DNA of 64,000 nucleotides. Source: Sporocytophaga myxococcoides DSM 11118 (GTDB taxonomy: Bacteria > Bacteroidota > Bacteroidia > Cytophagales > Cytophagaceae). The notes below the pieces were generated by a model. It was given only the letters and a program-made list of their open reading frames with translations. It was not told where the DNA came from and searched no databases. The DNA lies in contig NZ_AUFX01000003.1 of assembly GCF_000426725.1 (NCBI RefSeq), positions 186,001-250,000 on the forward strand. Direction: 5' to 3'. Below are positions 1,473 to 14,577 of the stretch, one piece after another; the stretch's first letter is position 1, and each line of letters starts with the position of its first letter. Both the position numbers and the translations under genes were made by a program.

Positions 1473-2867
1473 ATGGACAGATACATTGACCTGATTGAAC
1501 AGACATTTTATTTTCCTACAGAAGAGTTTAAAGTAGTTGACAATGATTTGCATTTCAATGAAGTACCTTTAATGGACATAGTAAACAAATATGGTACTCC
1601 TTTAAAATTAACCTTTCTGCCGAAAATCAGCAGTCAGATTCAGAAGGCCAAAAAATTCTTCAATGAAGCAATTGCAAACAATAACTATCAGGGCAATTAT
1701 GTATACTGTTATTGCACCAAATCTTCACACTTCCAGTTTGTTCTTGAAGAAGCTCTGAGAAATGATATCCATATTGAGACCTCAAGTGCTTATGATATTC
1801 CTATTGTAAAGATTCTACATAAAAAAGGCAAAATCAGCAAAGATACTTTTGTAATCTGTAATGGTTATAAAAGACCTGAATACACGCAATATATCAGTGA
1901 TCTGATAAATGAAGGTTTCAAAAACTGTATTCCGATTCTGGATAACCTTGATGAGATCAATGCCTATGATGAACAGGTAACCAATCCATGTTTTGTAGGT
2001 ATGAGATTAGCGGCTGATGAGGAGCCTAAATTTGAATTCTATACAAGCAGATTGGGCATCAGATACAATGATGTATTACCTCTGTATGAATCTAAAATAA
2101 AAGATAATCCGAAGTTTAAGCTTAAGATGCTTCATTTCTTTATCAATACAGGAATGAAGGATACTACATATTACTGGAGTGAATTAAGCAGATTCGTTCA
2201 CAAATACTGTGAATTGAGAAAAGTTTGTCCAGACCTTGATTCCATTGATATCGGTGGTGGCTGGCCAATTAAAACTTCCGTTCACTTTGATTATGACTAT
2301 GGATACATGGCCGATCAGATTGTGAAAACTATCAAAAGAATCTGCACTGAGAATCAGGTGCCGGTTCCGAATATCTTTACTGAATTTGGAAGCTTTACTG
2401 TGGGGGAAAGCGGTGCCGTGCTTTATTCAGTGCTTGGAAGCAAACTTCAGAATGATAAAGAAGAGTGGTATATGATCGACAGTTCATTTATCACTACACT
2501 GCCAGACGTATGGGGTTTGAATCAAAAGTTTATATTACTAGCTGTAAATAACTGGAACAAAGAATACGACAAAGTGAAAATTGGTGGTATTACTTGTGAT
2601 AGTATGGATTATTATAATTCGGAAGCTCACCTGAACATGGTATTCCTACCAAAGCTACAAGAACAGAATAAGCAGATAATAGGATTTTTCCATACAGGTG
2701 CTTATCAGGAATCACTAGGAGGATATGGCGGAATTCAGCATTGCCTTGTGCCTGCGCCAAAACATGTGCTTATTCAGAAAGATGAAAACGGCAATTTTAC
2801 AGATACCTTATTTGCTCCTGAACAAGATAAAAATGTAATGCTGAAGATTCTCGGATACGAGAGTTAA
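1473..2867 (+). CDS. speA: arginine decarboxylase, PLP fold type III
   Basis: 464 residues, the usual length of the short Bacteroidota arginine decarboxylase, which converts arginine to agmatine for polyamine synthesis. The PLP-binding lysine is Lys83 in YCYCTKSSHF, the phosphate-binding glycine loop is DIGGGWPIK, and the second active-site loop is ITCDSMD near the C terminus, all typical of alanine-racemase-fold decarboxylases. No signal peptide is seen. It sits divergently beside argS, a tidy arginine-related pair. Substrate choice between arginine and another basic amino acid cannot be settled by eye; arginine is inferred from overall resemblance to annotated Bacteroidota SpeA proteins. 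Confidence 0.85.
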   Translation: MDRYIDLIEQTFYFPTEEFKVVDNDLHFNEVPLMDIVNKYGTPLKLTFLPKISSQIQKAKKFFNEAIANNNYQGNYVYCYCTKSSHFQFVLEEALRNDIHIETSSAYDIPIVKILHKKGKISKDTFVICNGYKRPEYTQYISDLINEGFKNCIPILDNLDEINAYDEQVTNPCFVGMRLAADEEPKFEFYTSRLGIRYNDVLPLYESKIKDNPKFKLKMLHFFINTGMKDTTYYWSELSRFVHKYCELRKVCPDLDSIDIGGGWPIKTSVHFDYDYGYMADQIVKTIKRICTENQVPVPNIFTEFGSFTVGESGAVLYSVLGSKLQNDKEEWYMIDSSFITTLPDVWGLNQKFILLAVNNWNKEYDKVKIGGITCDSMDYYNSEAHLNMVFLPKLQEQNKQIIGFFHTGAYQESLGGYGGIQHCLVPAPKHVLIQKDENGNFTDTLFAPEQDKNVMLKILGYES

Positions 2868-2930: not shown

Positions 2931-3071
2931 ATGAGAAAAATACCATACTTATTCTTTGTTGCAGTTCTTTTATTATCTGCTTGCAGAAAAGAAGAAACAT
3001 GCGCTACGTATTCAAAAGATACGAAAGTTAAAAAAACGAAGCAATTTACTTCAGATGAAGCTTCTATCTAA
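2931..3071 (+). CDS. 46-residue lipoprotein
   Basis: A very short gene starting at ATG 2931 and ending TAA 3071, reading MRKIPYLFFVAVLLLSACRK and then a lysine-rich tail ending DEASI. The lipobox LLSAC makes it a likely lipoprotein with a mature part of only 29 residues, which contains one further cysteine. It follows the arginine decarboxylase by 63 bases on the same strand and is followed at once by a strong terminator, which supports it as a real last gene of the unit. I recognise no family. Confidence 0.6.
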   Translation: MRKIPYLFFVAVLLLSACRKEETCATYSKDTKVKKTKQFTSDEASI

Positions 3072-3178: not shown

Positions 3179-3979
3179 TCAAGCTCTTTTACTTGATAAG
3201 ACATAATCTGAAGATTGAATTAAGAAGGTTTCAAGTACACCATTAAACTCTTCTGGATGTTCCATCATAGGCACATGACCACATTGATCTATGACGTGTA
3301 ATGTTACATCACCTGGTATCAGTTTTTGAAATCTATGAGCAATATGTATAGGTGTTACTTTATCTTGTTTTCCCCAAATCAGAAGTACAGGTACATTTAT
3401 TTTGTCAAGTACTGACGCAACATTGTTAGTATTAGCAGAGCGGGCCATTTTAATTACTTTAATGGTTTTCCTGACATTATTAACGACCTCGTATACTTCG
3501 TCAACTAACTGAGGGGTAGCTACTCTTTCGTTGTGAAATATATTTCTGACTTTTTCTTCCACATACTGATAAGATCCTCTCTTCGGATATGTAACACCAA
3601 GGCTATTTTCATGTAAACCTGAACTTCCGGCAAGTACAAGTCTTTCTACTTTATCAGGATGGTTAACAGTATATAGTATAGCGAGATGGCCGCCAAGAGA
3701 GTTTCCCACTAATGTTACTTTTTCCAGATTCAAGGATTGAATAAAGCTATCAAGGTAGTCAACTAATCCATCGAGACCTTCTTTTGGTAACGATTTTTCA
3801 TATACTGGCAATTCTGGAATTATGACTCTGTATTTTTGAGAAAAATACTTTATCGTTTCATGCCAGTTGCTCAACCTTCCGAACAAACCGTGAAGTAGCA
3901 AAATCGGCTCTCCTGAGCCTGCTTCAGTGAAATGAAATAAGCTGGGCTTTCCAGATTTATTTTCTTTGAATAGTCTCAT
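3179..3979 (-). CDS. alpha/beta hydrolase in a SAM-riboswitch operon
   Basis: 266 residues with a complete alpha/beta-hydrolase catalytic set: oxyanion region LLHGLFG, nucleophile elbow GNSLGG with Ser94, Asp206 in IWGKQDKVTP and His235 in DQCGHVPMMEH. There is no signal peptide, so it acts in the cytosol. It starts two bases after the degenerate sulfhydrylase-like gene and shares its SAM-I riboswitch. Homoserine O-acetyltransferase (MetX) is also an alpha/beta-fold enzyme, but this protein is shorter than MetX and looks closer to the MhpC/epoxide-hydrolase type. Its role in methionine metabolism is therefore inferred from context only. Confidence 0.8.
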   Translation of the reverse strand: MRLFKENKSGKPSLFHFTEAGSGEPILLLHGLFGRLSNWHETIKYFSQKYRVIIPELPVYEKSLPKEGLDGLVDYLDSFIQSLNLEKVTLVGNSLGGHLAILYTVNHPDKVERLVLAGSSGLHENSLGVTYPKRGSYQYVEEKVRNIFHNERVATPQLVDEVYEVVNNVRKTIKVIKMARSANTNNVASVLDKINVPVLLIWGKQDKVTPIHIAHRFQKLIPGDVTLHVIDQCGHVPMMEHPEEFNGVLETFLIQSSDYVLSSKRA

Positions 3980-3981
3980 AA

Positions 3982-5163
3982 TCAGACTTGATTGGTTAGT
4001 TTTTCTTTTATCAATGCGATGGGCACTCCAAAGCTTAAAAACTTTTGCAATGCTTGTTCGAGTTCTAGTTGTCTTGACAAATACAGTCTATAGTTTACTT
4101 CATTGTTTAGCTGAGTAAATACTTGCTGAAAGTATTCCAGAACTACTTGAAGATTATTAACCTTAATCTCGATTATAAACTCTCTGTTCGTAGTATTCAC
4201 GTCAATAATCAGTCCTTCAGGCTTACCAGCGACAAAGAATCCCTTTAGTAAACCAAAGCTGAATTTATCATCCCATAAATTGAATTTAAGCCTGTTTCCA
4301 AATCCACCTTTAGAAAACCTTTCGGCATTCAGATTAGATATTGAAGACTTAAGTCCAGGATAACTCACTTCCATCACTGTTTCCAGTTGATTAAGCCATT
4401 TTGCAAGTTGAAAAGCAACAGAAGAATATTCTTTATATTTCTTCTCTTCTATATTGAGCTGGTTTTCTATAAGCTCGCCAGTTATGTCAGTTATAAGGAA
4501 TTCAGGAGCAATGTTTTTTTCACGTTGCTCTTTAAGCTCTTCCAGCAACGATTTTTGAATAAGCATTTGAAATAGATCTTTTTTTTGCCAGCTATTCAAG
4601 CCTTGTACCACAAAAGCTCCAATAGCTGTATTGTTAAACGCACTATAATTTTGAACCGAAGTGATAACAAAGTCAGCTCCTATTTCAAGAGGATTGAATA
4701 TCTTTCCCAAACCGCCTGCTGAATTGTCAATGATAACAGGAATCAAAGATTGATGAGCCTGTTCAATAATGTGTGAAAGATCTTCTACAGCCAATGTCAA
4801 ACTGTCGATTGTTTGCAAATAGATCACACCGATATTATTTAATGCGATAATATCTTTAAGATTAGTATCAGAATAATCTTTGGCAAAGAACAATTTGATT
4901 CCATTTCGTTTGAAAGCTTCAATTTCCCATACACCAAGATGGAATGTCAGGATATTTTTTCTTTCTCCGACTATGTTTTTTATGAGTGTATATCGTGCAG
5001 AACGAATTGATTTAAATGCTAAAGCCTCAATACCTGATTCAGAAATAGCAACTTTCTTTTCTATTTTTCTCAAAGTATCCCAGGTTGTATTAAAATGTAA
5101 ACTATCTTCTGCAGCATCATTGAGATGGCTGTGTGTTATTTTATCTATTTGGATGGATTTCAT
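3982..5163 (-). CDS. degenerate O-acetylhomoserine sulfhydrylase-like protein lacking the PLP lysine
   Basis: 393 residues that align along most of the Cys/Met-metabolism PLP family: SGIEAL matches the SGMAAI region, VIIDNS (Asp146) matches the VDNT pyridine-nitrogen site, and IGADFVITSVQNY matches the GADIVVHSATKY site. At that site the Schiff-base lysine is replaced by Asn172. The Tyr-x-Arg phosphate site and the GGTY tyrosine also look lost (LHFNTTWDT and LGVWEI instead). The C-terminal part still resembles the family. It should not be an ordinary PLP enzyme. The reading frame is intact and riboswitch-controlled, so a regulatory, scaffolding or new catalytic role is possible. The family assignment is by eye. 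Confidence 0.75.
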   Translation of the reverse strand: MKSIQIDKITHSHLNDAAEDSLHFNTTWDTLRKIEKKVAISESGIEALAFKSIRSARYTLIKNIVGERKNILTFHLGVWEIEAFKRNGIKLFFAKDYSDTNLKDIIALNNIGVIYLQTIDSLTLAVEDLSHIIEQAHQSLIPVIIDNSAGGLGKIFNPLEIGADFVITSVQNYSAFNNTAIGAFVVQGLNSWQKKDLFQMLIQKSLLEELKEQREKNIAPEFLITDITGELIENQLNIEEKKYKEYSSVAFQLAKWLNQLETVMEVSYPGLKSSISNLNAERFSKGGFGNRLKFNLWDDKFSFGLLKGFFVAGKPEGLIIDVNTTNREFIIEIKVNNLQVVLEYFQQVFTQLNNEVNYRLYLSRQLELEQALQKFLSFGVPIALIKEKLTNQV

Positions 5164-5275
5164 AGCTTTTGTGAATTACAGGATTAAAATTTGGTTGAAA
5201 ATTAGGATTGCAAACCGTTATGGTTTATCAAAACTTATTTGAGGTGATTCTACATCGTTTGTTCATCATCGTAAT

Positions 5276-5372
5276 ATTTATAGTTCCCTTATTGGGCAGG
5301 AATTAGCACCTTGAAATGAAACAGGTTGCTATAGGTTCATTGAGCCTGCTCTCTTCCCTATTCTTTATAAAT
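5276..5372 (-). promoter_or_regulatory. SAM-I (S-box) riboswitch
   Basis: Read on the minus strand, the leader holds the S-box hallmarks in order: P1 arm ATTTATA, AAGA junction, P2 stem ATAGG/CCTAT, loop CAGG able to pair with CCTG just after GCAA, the signature GGTGCTAATTCCTGC, a small P4 hairpin CCC-AATAA-GGG, then the matching P1 arm TATAAAT. It ends 113 bases before the start of the sulfhydrylase-like gene. I see no convincing intrinsic terminator in those 113 bases, so the mode of control is open. S-adenosylmethionine sensing places the operon in methionine/sulfur metabolism. Confidence 0.93.
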
Positions 5373-5651
5373 TAAATGCAGTAACCGCATGTAATTCTAT
5401 ACAAAGGTATTTTGAAATTCCTAAAATACAATAACTCTATAGGAAAAGTAGGGTTTATGTTTGAGGTTTATGAAAAGAATACCACCTGAATAAGTATAAT
5501 ATATTGAAAATTAAAGCTTAGTAAGAAAGAAATGATTGTCCATCATTATGGGCCATAAAGTAAATTATAAGAGCTAATCAGGATAAAAAGTCTAACCACA
5601 TAAGATGCACACAACAACAGATTATTAATCTTAATACAACATAGATCCTAT
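5373..5651. other. intergenic, nothing recognised
   Basis: About 280 AT-rich bases between the riboswitch and the end of the next minus-strand gene. They must contain the riboswitch operon promoter, but no box is clear enough to call. No open frame or repeat stands out. Confidence 0.4.
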
Positions 5652-11295: not shown

Positions 11296-14200
11296 TTAAT
11301 AAGTCCAACCATCCACATATTTTTTTTCTTTCACAAGTTTTCCGTTGATGTCATAGAATCTGGCAACTCCGTTAAGAACGCCCAATATATAATTTTCCGA
11401 AGACTTCATATTTCCGTTAGGATAATAAGTAGTCCTTAGTCCATTTAGCTCATCCGCAAAAAATTCTGCCTTTTCTTTCACTTTGCCGTCTGCATAATAT
11501 TCTGTTCTAGGCCCTTCAGTTTCGCTGCTTTGATAAGTTTTTTCATACCATTTTTTTCCAGAAGAATAATATGCAATGCATTTACCTTCTCTCATACTCT
11601 TATTCAGTGTAAACTCAATGGCTTTGTTTCCATTGTTGTAATACCCAGTAATCTGAGCTGTTTCGTTTGCAACTGGTATCAGTGCCCCACTAGCACCGTT
11701 TTTCATATTGTTGTACGAAACCAGAACATCATTCTCAAAATTTCTTAACAAGATAATGTCTTTTCCATCAGGCGAGTAATAAACGTTTTGCCCATTAAGG
11801 TTATTATCTTTGTAAGTAAATTCATTGTTCTTCGTACCATCTTCATTATACCAAACCCACAAACTGTCTTTGGATCCGTCAACATATTTGCCAGTTGAAC
11901 TTACGGTCTTCCCGTCTGAATAATAATACTTCCAGATACCAGATTTCTTGCCCAGGAAAAAACTACCTTTAAATTCAAGTTTTCCATCTTCAGTGAAACC
12001 TTCGGTCGGTCCATGTTTTAATCCGTCTATATAGTTGTATTTCTCTTTCAGTTTTCCATTAGGATAAAATTTTTGATAATCTCCCTGGAATAGCCCGCCC
12101 TTCATTTTTGCCTTTACGTAAGGTTTATTATTTAGATGTTTCTGTATAAAATCCCCTGTTCCATATTTTAACGCACAGGTAGTATAGGCTTTTCCAGTAG
12201 TATCGAACAATGTTTCTTCAGCGAATACGCCATCTTTCAGAACTGTAATAAGTCTCTTATGTCCACTTGTGGAATAATCTTCATAAATCCCATATTCTTC
12301 TCCATTCAAGTAATAATAAACATCACTTACTTTGCCATTAGGATAATAACGGTACCAGTATCCTTCTTTGCGGTCATTGACATAATATCCTTCAAAAGAC
12401 GTTTTACCGTTTGTATAAAATCCCTGGTAAAACCCGTCAAGTGCTCCATCCTTATAATTAAATTCTGAATCTTTCTTCCCATTTAAATAAAAAGTTTTTC
12501 CAGGTCCATTCTTAACTCCTGCTTTGTAATTCTCCTCTGAAGTGGCAACACCTGTTAATTCATAATATTTCCATAGCCCATCTCTTTCTCCGTCTTTGTA
12601 CGTTCCTTCAGACATTGTATTAACTCCATCCGGATATAATGACTTTAATTTTAGAACACCACCTTTTTCTTTATTTTCAGAAATAAGCTTTCCTGATTTA
12701 TCAAAATATCTGACTCCTTTTAACTTGCCGTCTTTATAGTCAAGAATATAGTGAAGTTTACCATCCGTATCATTTACTTTGTGTTCACCGTTCTGATTTC
12801 CTTTTTCATTATAAGTGCATTCTTCCAGAAGGACACCTGTTTCAGAATATTTTTTCCATGAACCAATGATTTTACCACCTTTAAAATTTGAAACCTCACC
12901 TTGTTTTCCATTGTCATAATAATGATTCCATACTCCTTCTTCCTTATCATCTTTCAAAGCACCCTCTGAAGCAATCTTGCCATTGTTGTGGAAAGTTTTG
13001 AAAGTACCATTATATTTTCCATTTTTATATTCAGCTTCCTTCACCAAGGCACCCAGGTTATTGAAATCTTTACCTTTTCCTTCTTTAAGCCCATTAATGA
13101 AATTAACATCACTTTTGACACTTCCACTGTTGTAAAATGTTTTGGATAAACCATTTAGTTTATCATCTTTAAAATTATTAACAGTTTCAAGTACCTCAGC
13201 ATTGTTATGGTATTTCAATTCCCCTGCTATACTTCCATTGGACATTGTACAGGTATACTTAATTGCCCCGTTGGGATAGTATAATTTGTAAGGTCCCTCA
13301 GACTTTCCTGCATTATAACTACTGACCTCTTTAAGGACTCCATTGTCATAGTAATATTTCCACTCACCTGTTTTATTGCCATTGCTATCAAAATTACCTT
13401 CAGCATTGATGACAGTATTGGGATAATAAAAAATCCACTGACCTGTTCTGATAGTATTTTGAGCATCTTTGTAATTACCCAGTGAATGAATAAATCTGGT
13501 ATCATAATACCATGCACTCAGCGTCTGGTCTTTCCCCTCTATTTTAACAGTTTTCTTTACAATATCTTTTGCTAAATAATTGGATGCCCAGGAAAAAAAC
13601 TCCTGTTTCTTTGCCTGATTTTTCTTCAGCCAGCTTTGAACTTCAGGAATATTTAATCCTGATAGCATTGTATAAACAAAGGGCTCCAGATAGTTTTTCT
13701 TATTAAGTTCAACAAAGAATGGAACATACTGTTGCATCCAAATGGAAGTGTCTGAGGCTTTATATTCCAGCTTTTCAAGGAAAAGCTGAGTTTGTGAAAC
13801 GAATGGATAATTGAGTTTAACTTTGTGCTTGTATTTACTGTTCAATGCGACTTTAGATTCAATGATGGCTTCAAGGTCTCCAAAGCTATAATTGGATTTA
13901 TCTTTATTTTCGGGAAGATTGGTTTCTCCTTTTACAAGTTTCTCAATTTTTGTAATGACATCAAAAGCATTTGATCCTCCTGGCTTGAGCACAAGATACA
14001 TATAGCTGGCAAGCATATATGGTACAAGTTTACCTTGATCAGAAGCAATAGTTGATAATCTGTAATGAGTTAAAGGGTGATAAGGATTGTAATTCACGAT
14101 AATATCTTTATACATCGTCATAGACTTAGGCAAGTTCTTTTTCTCATATGCCAAAGCGCAATTGTATCGGATAAGGAAATCCCATTGATATTTTTTTAAA

Positions 14201-14577
14201 GCATCTTCATCTACCTTTATGGCTTCATCGGTTTTGCCCATTTTATCAAGGGCTACGCCTTTATTTCTAAGGAAATGATTTTCACTTTTTGAGTTGTACG
14301 ACAAACCTTCATCTGCAATCTTAATCCCTTGTACGAATTGGGAATCAGCGATGTACGACAGAGAAAGCTCGGCAAGGGCCCAAACGTAATTGGTGTCATT
14401 CTTATCCACCTCTTTAAGTCTATCGATTGCCTCTTTATACTTACCTTCATCATATAATGAAATTCCCTCGTTAATGATTTCATCAGAATTGATGATGAAT
14501 TTTTTCTCTTGTGCTACAGAATTAAGGCTTTGCCAAAATATAAAGCAAAACAGGATTAAAAAATTTTTATTAAACAT
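11296..14577 (-). CDS. large secreted MORN/YwqK-repeat protein
   Basis: 1093 residues with signal peptide (MFNKNFLILFCFIFWQSLNSVAQ). The first 240 residues look like TPR helices (EGISLYDEGKYKEAIDRL). From about residue 370 to the end it consists of well over twenty tandem MORN-type units of about 22 residues, with cores such as YYPNGKLKEKYNYIDG and YYDNGVLKEVSSYNAG. Such repeats form extended beta meanders and are common in Bacteroidota proteins labelled YwqK-like. The stop lies seven bases before the start of the transglutaminase-like gene. An exported structural or binding protein is the best guess. The antitoxin label often given to the family is not supported here by any toxin gene. Confidence 0.85.
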   Translation of the reverse strand: MFNKNFLILFCFIFWQSLNSVAQEKKFIINSDEIINEGISLYDEGKYKEAIDRLKEVDKNDTNYVWALAELSLSYIADSQFVQGIKIADEGLSYNSKSENHFLRNKGVALDKMGKTDEAIKVDEDALKKYQWDFLIRYNCALAYEKKNLPKSMTMYKDIIVNYNPYHPLTHYRLSTIASDQGKLVPYMLASYMYLVLKPGGSNAFDVITKIEKLVKGETNLPENKDKSNYSFGDLEAIIESKVALNSKYKHKVKLNYPFVSQTQLFLEKLEYKASDTSIWMQQYVPFFVELNKKNYLEPFVYTMLSGLNIPEVQSWLKKNQAKKQEFFSWASNYLAKDIVKKTVKIEGKDQTLSAWYYDTRFIHSLGNYKDAQNTIRTGQWIFYYPNTVINAEGNFDSNGNKTGEWKYYYDNGVLKEVSSYNAGKSEGPYKLYYPNGAIKYTCTMSNGSIAGELKYHNNAEVLETVNNFKDDKLNGLSKTFYNSGSVKSDVNFINGLKEGKGKDFNNLGALVKEAEYKNGKYNGTFKTFHNNGKIASEGALKDDKEEGVWNHYYDNGKQGEVSNFKGGKIIGSWKKYSETGVLLEECTYNEKGNQNGEHKVNDTDGKLHYILDYKDGKLKGVRYFDKSGKLISENKEKGGVLKLKSLYPDGVNTMSEGTYKDGERDGLWKYYELTGVATSEENYKAGVKNGPGKTFYLNGKKDSEFNYKDGALDGFYQGFYTNGKTSFEGYYVNDRKEGYWYRYYPNGKVSDVYYYLNGEEYGIYEDYSTSGHKRLITVLKDGVFAEETLFDTTGKAYTTCALKYGTGDFIQKHLNNKPYVKAKMKGGLFQGDYQKFYPNGKLKEKYNYIDGLKHGPTEGFTEDGKLEFKGSFFLGKKSGIWKYYYSDGKTVSSTGKYVDGSKDSLWVWYNEDGTKNNEFTYKDNNLNGQNVYYSPDGKDIILLRNFENDVLVSYNNMKNGASGALIPVANETAQITGYYNNGNKAIEFTLNKSMREGKCIAYYSSGKKWYEKTYQSSETEGPRTEYYADGKVKEKAEFFADELNGLRTTYYPNGNMKSSENYILGVLNGVARFYDINGKLVKEKKYVDGWTY

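What the first reader, a model, noticed from the sequence alone, without database searches (positions are those of the whole stretch)
3179..5372. SAM-I riboswitch controls a sulfhydrylase homologue that has lost its PLP lysine
The 97-base leader is a textbook S-box. The first gene behind it aligns with O-acetylhomoserine sulfhydrylase but has Asn172 at the Schiff-base lysine position and also seems to have lost the Tyr-x-Arg phosphate site and the GGTY tyrosine. The frame is intact over 393 codons and is followed after two bases by an alpha/beta hydrolase with a full triad. A dead PLP enzyme kept under methionine control with a possible MetX-like partner suggests a regulatory subunit, a scaffold, or an unknown reaction.
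Basis: partly seen in the sequence, partly recalled or inferred. Interest (0 to 1): 0.75.

Follow-up and report, generated by a model that had tools for sequence, protein, structure and literature searches.

The report
Dead sulfur enzyme under SAM riboswitch
A bacterial gene behind an S-adenosylmethionine-sensing RNA switch makes a protein that looks like a methionine-pathway enzyme but has lost its active site, yet evolution still preserves it, and its tail is an unnamed domain that related bacteria keep as a separate small protein, sometimes behind the same kind of RNA switch.

Summary
A SAM-I riboswitch precedes a 393-aa MetY homologue with Asn172 at the PLP-lysine site; its other cofactor and substrate sites are gone too, bar one Asp. 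It is not decaying: dN/dS is 0.05-0.06 among three species, in the dead PLP part as in the tail. The tail (residues ~290-393) is not recognisably MetY; it matches an unnamed family of ~150-aa standalone proteins in Cyclobacteriaceae. In 14 of 63 such genomes (4 genera) the standalone gene lies directly behind a SAM-I riboswitch. Those aptamers and P0001's share a paired signature (19 of 19) absent from 34 other SAM-I aptamers, so switch and tail look like one inherited unit. One genome has riboswitch, standalone domain, hydrolase: the window's operon without the PLP part. The hydrolase is an extra copy of a widespread hydrolase, not MetX. Lysine-less MetY relatives form one side of a tree and co-occur with the family 2A (sulfur) encapsulin (9 of 11 genomes against 1 of 147). 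Best reading: a non-catalytic adaptor or regulatory subunit of the sulfur/methionine starvation response; partner unknown, MetY or the encapsulin being the leading ideas.

The parts
5402..5431 (-). Promoter-like element TTG-N19-TACCTTTG (Bacteroidota-type consensus, recalled) upstream of the aptamer
   Evidence: Pattern TTG-N17-23-TANNTTTG found here and in the leaders of the other three congeneric genomes, not in those of G010/G014; 5 matches in the whole window, both strands
5275..5373 (-). SAM-I (S-box) riboswitch aptamer with the ATAGGG...CCTAT signature of the domain-linked aptamers
   Evidence: RF00162, 67.6 bits; both halves of the signature in 19 of 19 domain-linked aptamers, in 0 of 34 others
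3982..5163 (-). P0001: 393-aa lysine-less MetY-derived pseudoenzyme with its own C-terminal domain
   Evidence: ORF; PF01053 69.1 bits; active-site table; dN/dS 0.051-0.063
4273..5163 (-). Residues 1-297: MetY-derived pseudo-PLP part
   Evidence: PF01053 over residues 30-296; profile comparison with MetY just before the junction, E 1.1e-14
4648..4650 (-). Codon of Asn172 at the Schiff-base lysine position
   Evidence: Alignments; residue number
3985..4296 (-). Residues 290-393: C-terminal domain, homologous to the standalone family
   Evidence: Profile comparison with standalones E 4.6e-15, with the MetY C-terminus E 0.5; AlphaFold2 strand-helix-strand-strand-long helix in both models
3179..3979 (-). 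P0002: alpha/beta hydrolase, Ser94-Asp206-His235, extra paralogue of a widespread Cytophagales hydrolase
   Evidence: PF00561 106 bits; MGS-MChE2 5jd6 E 1.5e-71; tree
1473..2867 (+). speA-like arginine decarboxylase, convergent neighbour; a homologue lies directly behind the standalone domain gene in 41 of 63 Cyclobacteriaceae loci (context, not part of the operon)

Best explanation
The gene belongs to the sulfur/methionine starvation response and is held down by SAM. Its product is a pseudoenzyme: a MetY-derived PLP fold that cannot hold PLP as a Schiff base, joined to a small conserved C-terminal domain, and apparently co-transcribed with an alpha/beta hydrolase. When SAM is scarce the SAM-I riboswitch lets the operon be expressed. 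The protein then acts not as a catalyst but as an adaptor or regulatory subunit. The C-terminal domain is the conserved working module (it exists alone, in four Cyclobacteriaceae genera behind the same riboswitch lineage). The dead PLP fold probably serves oligomerisation, most simply with the genome's own MetY (which has no riboswitch), as LCB1 does for LCB2 in serine palmitoyltransferase. Shown by computation: riboswitch match, active-site loss, purifying selection, domain family, riboswitch-domain linkage. Inferred: SAM binding and repression, co-transcription, the non-catalytic adaptor role, every named partner, the hydrolase's contribution.
For: Active-site residues lost in 5 of 5 intact P0001-type proteins. 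dN/dS 0.051-0.063 for the gene, 0.047-0.065 for residues 1-285, 0.039-0.062 for the tail, 0.033-0.064 for the hydrolase. Standalone family: hhalign probability 96.6, 0 of 200 column shuffles as good, no Pfam family in 18 proteins and no NCBIfam family in 9. SAM-I directly upstream of the standalone gene in 14 of 63 Cyclobacteriaceae genomes, 4 genera. Shared aptamer signature 19/19 against 0/34. G868: SAM-I, standalone domain, hydrolase in the window's order. Sulfur-related neighbours of standalone genes: TauE in 14 and Rrf2 in 14 of 63 loci, a SoxC-type sulfite dehydrogenase and a YeiH-family transporter in one, MetY-MetX about 6 kb off in the three g143 loci. No residue of an obvious catalytic kind is invariant in the 12-row alignment of fused and standalone domains.
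Against: 49 of 63 standalone genes have no SAM-I riboswitch at the gathering score directly upstream. In G001 the aptamer is degenerate and was not detected at E 0.1; in G003 the gene has a frame break. G010 has no hydrolase beside the gene. G888 has the domain-hydrolase pair but no riboswitch. The only standalone gene directly beside a MetY (G008) has no riboswitch. AlphaFold2 gave no reliable model of the PLP part (pLDDT mostly under 50), so heteromer formation is untested. 41 of 63 standalone genes sit before a speA-like gene, which may be inherited order or may point to polyamines instead of methionine. The leader folds no better than shuffles (z -0.13) and no expression platform was recognised.
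Confidence: 0.5

Rival explanations
1. Only the C-terminal domain matters; the MetY-like part is a passenger gained by fusion and kept for folding or dimerisation. The unit of function is riboswitch + small domain (+ hydrolase).
For: The standalone domain occurs without any PLP part behind the same riboswitch lineage, once with a hydrolase behind it as well (G868). The junction near residue 297 is sharp: MetY on one side, standalone family on the other.
Against: The dead PLP part is as constrained as the tail (0.047-0.065 against 0.039-0.062) and keeps Asp146; lysine-less relatives without this tail exist (H group, paralogue L004, L257).
Confidence: 0.22
2. It still catalyses something, with PLP or PMP held without a Schiff base, or with another cofactor.
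For: Asp146 (pyridine-nitrogen partner in the family, recalled) is kept in 5 of 5; some PLP-fold enzymes work with His in place of Lys (ColD, recalled), and the H group has His there.
Against: Both phosphate-binding motifs, the stacking Tyr and the carboxylate Arg are lost as well; the tail that carries the Arg in MetY is replaced.
Confidence: 0.13
3. A partner of the family 2A encapsulin sulfur compartment (cargo, loading factor or persulfide handler).
For: Encapsulin shell gene in 9 of 11 genomes with lysine-less MetY relatives against 1 of 147 others (Fisher p 4e-12, by genus 3e-6). G014: the P0001 orthologue ends about 1.6 kb from the shell gene, which is followed by cysteine desulfurase cargo and serine acetyltransferase genes. 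G142: relative L257 is the neighbour of the shell gene with a tRNA-Cys between.
Against: G010 and G007 have a lysine-less relative but no shell gene was found; in the window's own genome the shell gene is about 106 kb away. The co-occurrence is phylogenetically clustered and the p-values are not corrected for it. Encapsulin-bearing stretches fetched from G000, G013, G016, G018 and G148 show no lysine-less MetY relative nearby. No loading sequence was tested for.
Confidence: 0.12
4. A decaying pseudogene behind a leftover riboswitch.
For: Frame break in G003 and degenerate aptamer in G001.
Against: dN/dS 0.05-0.06 over three species; the same losses at 35-39% identity in the other genus; promoter-like element conserved in four congeners.
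Confidence: 0.03

Closest known systems
MetY / O-acetylhomoserine sulfhydrylase (TIGR01326; own genome L002)
   Same: Fold family and sequence up to about residue 297
   Different: No PLP lysine, no phosphate, stacking or carboxylate sites; 92.5 bits against a cut-off of 495.1; different C-terminal domain
LCB1 (SPTLC1) subunit of serine palmitoyltransferase
   Same: A PLP-fold paralogue without the lysine that forms a heterodimer with the catalytic subunit (PMC3794620, passages only)
   Different: Different PLP subfamily; eukaryotic membrane complex; for P0001 no partner is shown
SAM-I riboswitch-controlled methionine genes
   Same: Same riboswitch family; in the window's genome it also precedes a MetX relative and a MetH-like gene (MetH named by eye)
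   Different: Here it precedes a non-enzyme; its aptamer belongs to a distinct signature group
Family 2A encapsulin systems (shell, cysteine desulfurase, serine acetyltransferase)
   Same: Compartment induced by sulfate starvation in Synechococcus (PMC8049743, passages) that co-occurs with the lysine-less MetY relatives
   Different: The word homoserine does not occur in the main text of either encapsulin paper looked at and no held paper has both encapsulin and sulfhydrylase; physical linkage in only 2 genomes
MGS-MChE2-type alpha/beta hydrolase (5jd6)
   Same: Closest solved relative of P0002 by sequence
   Different: P0002 is a second, diverged copy tied to the P0001 operon; its substrate is unknown

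Membership tests
SAM-I riboswitch (RF00162) | Covariance-model score above the curated cut-off | tested here: met
   67.6 against 44.4 bits
SAM-I riboswitch (RF00162) | Binds SAM and represses the downstream gene | not testable with these tools
   No experiment; no expression platform recognised in the folded leader (z -0.13)
Cys/Met metabolism PLP enzymes (PF01053) | Profile match above gathering score | tested here: met
   69.1 against 27 bits, residues 30-296
Cys/Met metabolism PLP enzymes as working enzymes | Schiff-base lysine | tested here: not met
   Asn172 here, Asn or Ser in 5 of 5 intact P0001-type proteins
Cys/Met metabolism PLP enzymes as working enzymes | Tyr-x-Arg and SG[QMH] phosphate sites, stacking Tyr, carboxylate Arg | tested here: not met
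   Lost in 5 of 5; motif roles recalled from the family
MetY (TIGR01326 subfamily) | Score above the curated cut-off | tested here: not met
   92.5 against 495.1 bits; own MetY L002 scores 700.8
MetX homoserine O-acetyltransferase (for P0002) | Best-scoring family is MetX | tested here: not met
   None of the 25 best NCBIfam families shown, of 47, is MetX; a MetX relative is elsewhere: L104, 355 bits to TIGR01392, itself below that cut-off of 500
Pseudogene | Relaxed selection | tested here: not met
   dN/dS 0.051-0.063 in three pairs; the G003 copy does have a frame break
Standalone SAM-I-linked domain family (unnamed) | Profile similarity over the alpha/beta core and long C-terminal helix | tested here: met
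   hhalign probability 96.6, E 6e-10; 0 of 200 shuffles as good
LCB1-like heteromer subunit | Physical complex with an active paralogue | not testable with these tools
   No complex prediction was run; model of the PLP part unreliable
Family 2A encapsulin component | Carried in the encapsulin gene cluster | tested here: inconclusive
   Close to the shell gene in G014 and G142 only, not in the window's genome

The most novel reading that the evidence does not exclude
A persistent clade of lysine-less MetY pseudoenzymes serves the family 2A encapsulin sulfur compartment and the methionine regulon of Cytophagales. In one branch it was welded to, or turned into, a new SAM-riboswitch-controlled domain that other lineages keep as a free-standing regulator of sulfur acquisition. 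P0001 would then be a SAM-sensed link between methionine supply and sulfur storage.
Probability: 0.2. Interest if true: 0.82.

Novelty: new variant of a known kind. Interest (0 to 1): 0.62.

Why it matters
Lysine-less PLP-fold proteins with a known role are few; LCB1 is the one I could document here. This would be a group of them in bacteria, one branch behind a SAM riboswitch, with an unnamed domain that travels with its own lineage of SAM-I aptamer. It gives a handle (a riboswitch, two genes, culturable Bacteroidota) on how these bacteria couple methionine status to sulfur acquisition or storage, a function lead for an uncatalogued protein family, and perhaps one for sulfur encapsulins.

Tried and rejected
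Lysine elsewhere fills the site: rejected for P0001 by sequence (SVQNYSAFNN); in G002 and the broken G003 copy a Lys stands one position earlier, and the H group has Lys one position earlier with His at the site. Not tested structurally.

Hydrolase as MetX: rejected.

C-terminal domain as a plainly recognisable MetY C-terminal domain: not shown. The post-junction parts do not match (E 0.5, 132 of 200 shuffles as good). The H group aligns with them in register, but 12 of 100 (fused domain) and 2 of 100 (standalones) shuffles do as well. The part of the standalones before the junction matches P0001 and MetY in register, with 3 of 200 shuffles as good; a few shuffles there gave outlying scores that I did not resolve. 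Derivation from the MetY C-domain and fusion of an independent domain both stay open.

Fold search of the standalone model in the PDB: no match at E <= 0.001, best 0.06. Structure of the PLP part: unreliable. Covariation of the aptamer was not attempted: alignment A7 mixed strands and was dropped; A11 was only read. Row L028 is a wrong ORF and is ignored. The trees carry long-branch warnings. One search failed on a wrong row name and was repeated.

Literature: searches listed nothing that bears on this gene, this domain or an encapsulin-sulfhydrylase link. Papers PMC3794620, PMC8049743 and PMC8346489 were seen as passages; all others only as listings.

Full report
What is there. On the minus strand of the window a promoter-like element (5402-5431) is followed by a SAM-I aptamer (5275-5373, 67.6 bits), a 393-codon gene (P0001, 3982-5163) and, two bases on, an alpha/beta hydrolase gene (P0002, 3179-3979). 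The promoter-like element is in the leaders of all four congeneric genomes but not in those of G010 or G014. The aptamer reaches the gathering score in front of P0001-type genes in 5 of 6 genomes; in G001 it has drifted and was not found even at E 0.1. No expression platform was recognised in the folded leader, which is no more stable than shuffles, so the mode of control is unknown.

The active site. P0001 matches PF01053 over residues 30-296. Against the genome's own MetY and other Cytophagales MetY proteins, the five intact P0001-type proteins have Asn or Ser for the lysine, His-x-Asn/Ile for Tyr-x-Arg, Ser/Thr-Ile/Val/Phe-Arg for the SGQ phosphate loop, no GGTY tyrosine and no carboxylate arginine; the pyridine-nitrogen Asp remains (motif roles recalled). 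Further relatives also lack the lysine: a paralogue in the same genus (Glu), one in G142 (Asp), and a group in genus g5 with His. In a maximum-likelihood tree of 25 rows all 12 lysine-less rows lie on one side of a branch (100/99) from MetY and two other members of the family, with long-branch warnings. In three of the four g5 stretches fetched the gene follows an Lrp-type regulator that lies opposite metE; the fourth contig starts inside the regulator (the names were checked by profile for G007 only).

Selection. Nei-Gojobori dN/dS among three congeneric genomes is 0.051-0.063 for the whole gene, 0.047-0.065 for residues 1-285 and 0.039-0.062 for the tail; the hydrolase gives 0.033-0.064 over four genomes. 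The dead part is as constrained as the rest. Against this, the G003 copy is split by a frame break; its two pieces, compared apart with G001, give 0.07-0.08, so the break is recent or an assembly error.

The tail is another domain. A profile of the tail matched 27 of 390 order genomes: the six P0001-type genomes, a 155-aa standalone protein opposite MetY in G008, standalone proteins in 17 genomes of family f19, and three weak matches (E 0.005-0.007) that I do not count. The f19 records fetched by name are Belliella, Rhodonellum, Aquiflexum, Cecembia, Indibacter, Pararhodonellum and others, which is Cyclobacteriaceae (for two of the genera). A profile of the standalones matched 57 of 245 f19 genomes in 22 of 84 genera; six more f19 genomes bring the number examined to 63. 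In the class at large 5 of 395 genomes passed the threshold and only the window's own is convincing. Profile comparison of fused and standalone domains gives probability 96.6, E 6e-10. For the part after residue 297 it is E 4.6e-15 with 0 of 200 column shuffles as good, whereas the same part shows no similarity to MetY (E 0.5, 132 of 200 shuffles as good). No Pfam or NCBIfam family covers the standalones (18 proteins against Pfam against NCBIfam; only sub-threshold matches). AlphaFold2 gives the standalone a confident helix-strand-strand-helix-strand-strand-long helix core (pLDDT 82; residues 1-27 under 50) and the P0001 tail the matching strand-helix-strand-strand-long helix. Foldseek found no PDB match better than E 0.06.

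Riboswitch and domain travel together. Of the 63 f19 genomes with the standalone gene, 14 carry a SAM-I riboswitch directly upstream: g123 1 of 1, g141 3 of 3, g163 9 of 9, g377 1 of 2 (one genome, G412, was judged from the whole-genome list). The other 49 do not, at the gathering score. G420 has a SAM-I aptamer behind, not before, the gene. The aptamers before P0001-type genes (5) and before the standalones (14) all carry a 5' ATAGGG and a complementary CCTAT; of 34 other SAM-I aptamers none has the first, 4 have the second and none both. The 34 are the three others of the window's genome, 30 f19 loci that one search returned as its best, and G420, so they are not a random sample; the degenerate G001 leader was not counted on either side. 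The simplest reading is that riboswitch and domain are one inherited unit older than the split of the two families.

Neighbours. In G868 the order is SAM-I, standalone domain, hydrolase (35% identical to P0002): the window's operon without the PLP part. In G888 the two ORFs stand 17 bases apart without a detected riboswitch. The P0001-operon hydrolases and these two form separate clades, both outside the clade of the widespread copy, so the pairing is either old or was made twice. Beside the G868 operon lie a SoxC-type sulfite dehydrogenase (475.7 against 420 bits) and a YeiH-family transporter (below its cut-off). TauE is found in 14 and Rrf2 in 14 of the 63 loci. One and the same TonB receptor (62-76% identical) lies near the standalone gene in 12 loci; its substrate is unknown. 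In G401 the order is SAM-I, domain, binding-protein-like gene (PBP match below cut-off), TonB receptor. In 41 of 63 loci a speA-like gene follows on the same strand within 500 bases; a homologue of it is P0001's convergent neighbour in the window. This may be inherited order, since argS and an arginase-family gene are near in 32 loci each, and it leaves a polyamine role open.

Regulon and encapsulin. The window's genome has four SAM-I aptamers: before P0001, a MetX relative, a MetH-like gene, and a short ORF with an HPP-family membrane protein; its MetY has none. Lysine-less MetY relatives were found in 11 genomes, and the family 2A encapsulin shell in 9 of these 11 against 1 of the 147 other relatives searched (Fisher p 4e-12 by genome, 3e-6 by genus, not corrected for kinship). 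The two searches drew their genomes separately; I take the first to cover the second but did not list every genome. In G014 the P0001 orthologue lies about 1.6 kb from the shell gene, followed by cysteine desulfurase cargo and serine acetyltransferase genes. In G142 the relative is the neighbour of the shell gene, a tRNA-Cys between them. G010 and G007 lack a found shell gene; in the window's genome the two lie about 106 kb apart; and the encapsulin clusters of G000, G013, G016, G018 and G148 show no such relative nearby. Family 2A encapsulins are induced by sulfate starvation in Synechococcus (PMC8049743, passages).

How it most likely works. When SAM is low the riboswitch permits expression; the product is a non-catalytic adaptor or regulatory subunit. 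The riboswitch match, active-site loss, selection and domain linkage are shown by computation; ligand, direction of control, partner and the hydrolase's job are inferred. MetY is the simplest partner because the folds are related and MetY itself is outside SAM-I control here, as with LCB1 and LCB2 in serine palmitoyltransferase (PMC3794620, passages). The encapsulin is the bolder candidate.

Verdict. Observation confirmed; interpretation partly supported and redirected: the thing to study is the riboswitch-linked domain and the lysine-less clade, not a MetX-MetY pair. Nothing that bears on it was listed by the literature searches.

Noticed in passing
L103:5346-6648 (G000:C1, about 4 kb upstream of the window): A SAM-I riboswitch (76.6 bits) precedes a 78-aa ORF and an HPP-family membrane protein; an HPP protein under SAM control suggests a transporter of the methionine regulon.
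   Followed up: partly
L287:7943-9154 and L286:7962-9173: A second lysine-less MetY paralogue (Glu at the site in L287) in the same genus, without a detected riboswitch (for L004).
   Followed up: partly
L281, L282, L283, L284: Lysine-less MetY relatives with His at the site in four g5 genomes; in three the fetched stretch shows an Lrp-type regulator upstream and metE opposite.
   Followed up: partly
L257:1-2218: Lysine-less MetY relative (Asp at the site) next to a family 2A encapsulin shell gene with a tRNA-Cys gene between them.
   Followed up: partly
L215, L216, L217 (genus g143): MetY and MetX homologues lie about 6 kb from the standalone domain gene.
   Followed up: no
L299 (G904:C2): A third hydrolase copy follows a redoxin-like gene and precedes an ATP-grasp gene and a flavin-dependent monooxygenase-like ORF (named by eye), about 2.8 kb behind a SAM-I aptamer (C2:53425).
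   Followed up: no
L229:8217-8333: In G420 a SAM-I aptamer lies between the standalone domain gene and a large TonB-type receptor gene.
   Followed up: no
G904 genome: Seven SAM-I riboswitches in one genome, more than in any of the other 19 genomes.
   Followed up: no
L015:2679-3000 and L016:1498-2680: Degenerate SAM-I aptamer in G001 and a frame break in the G003 copy of P0001: signs that the system is not kept in every congener.
   Followed up: partly
window 2931-3071: A short putative lipoprotein-like ORF (MRKIPYLFFVAVLLLSACRK..., read by eye) between speA and a terminator-like hairpin, converging on the P0002 gene.
   Followed up: no
window 11296-14577: A 1093-aa protein full of repeated YxxNGK/YxDGxxxG-like motifs (MORN-like by eye).
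   Followed up: no
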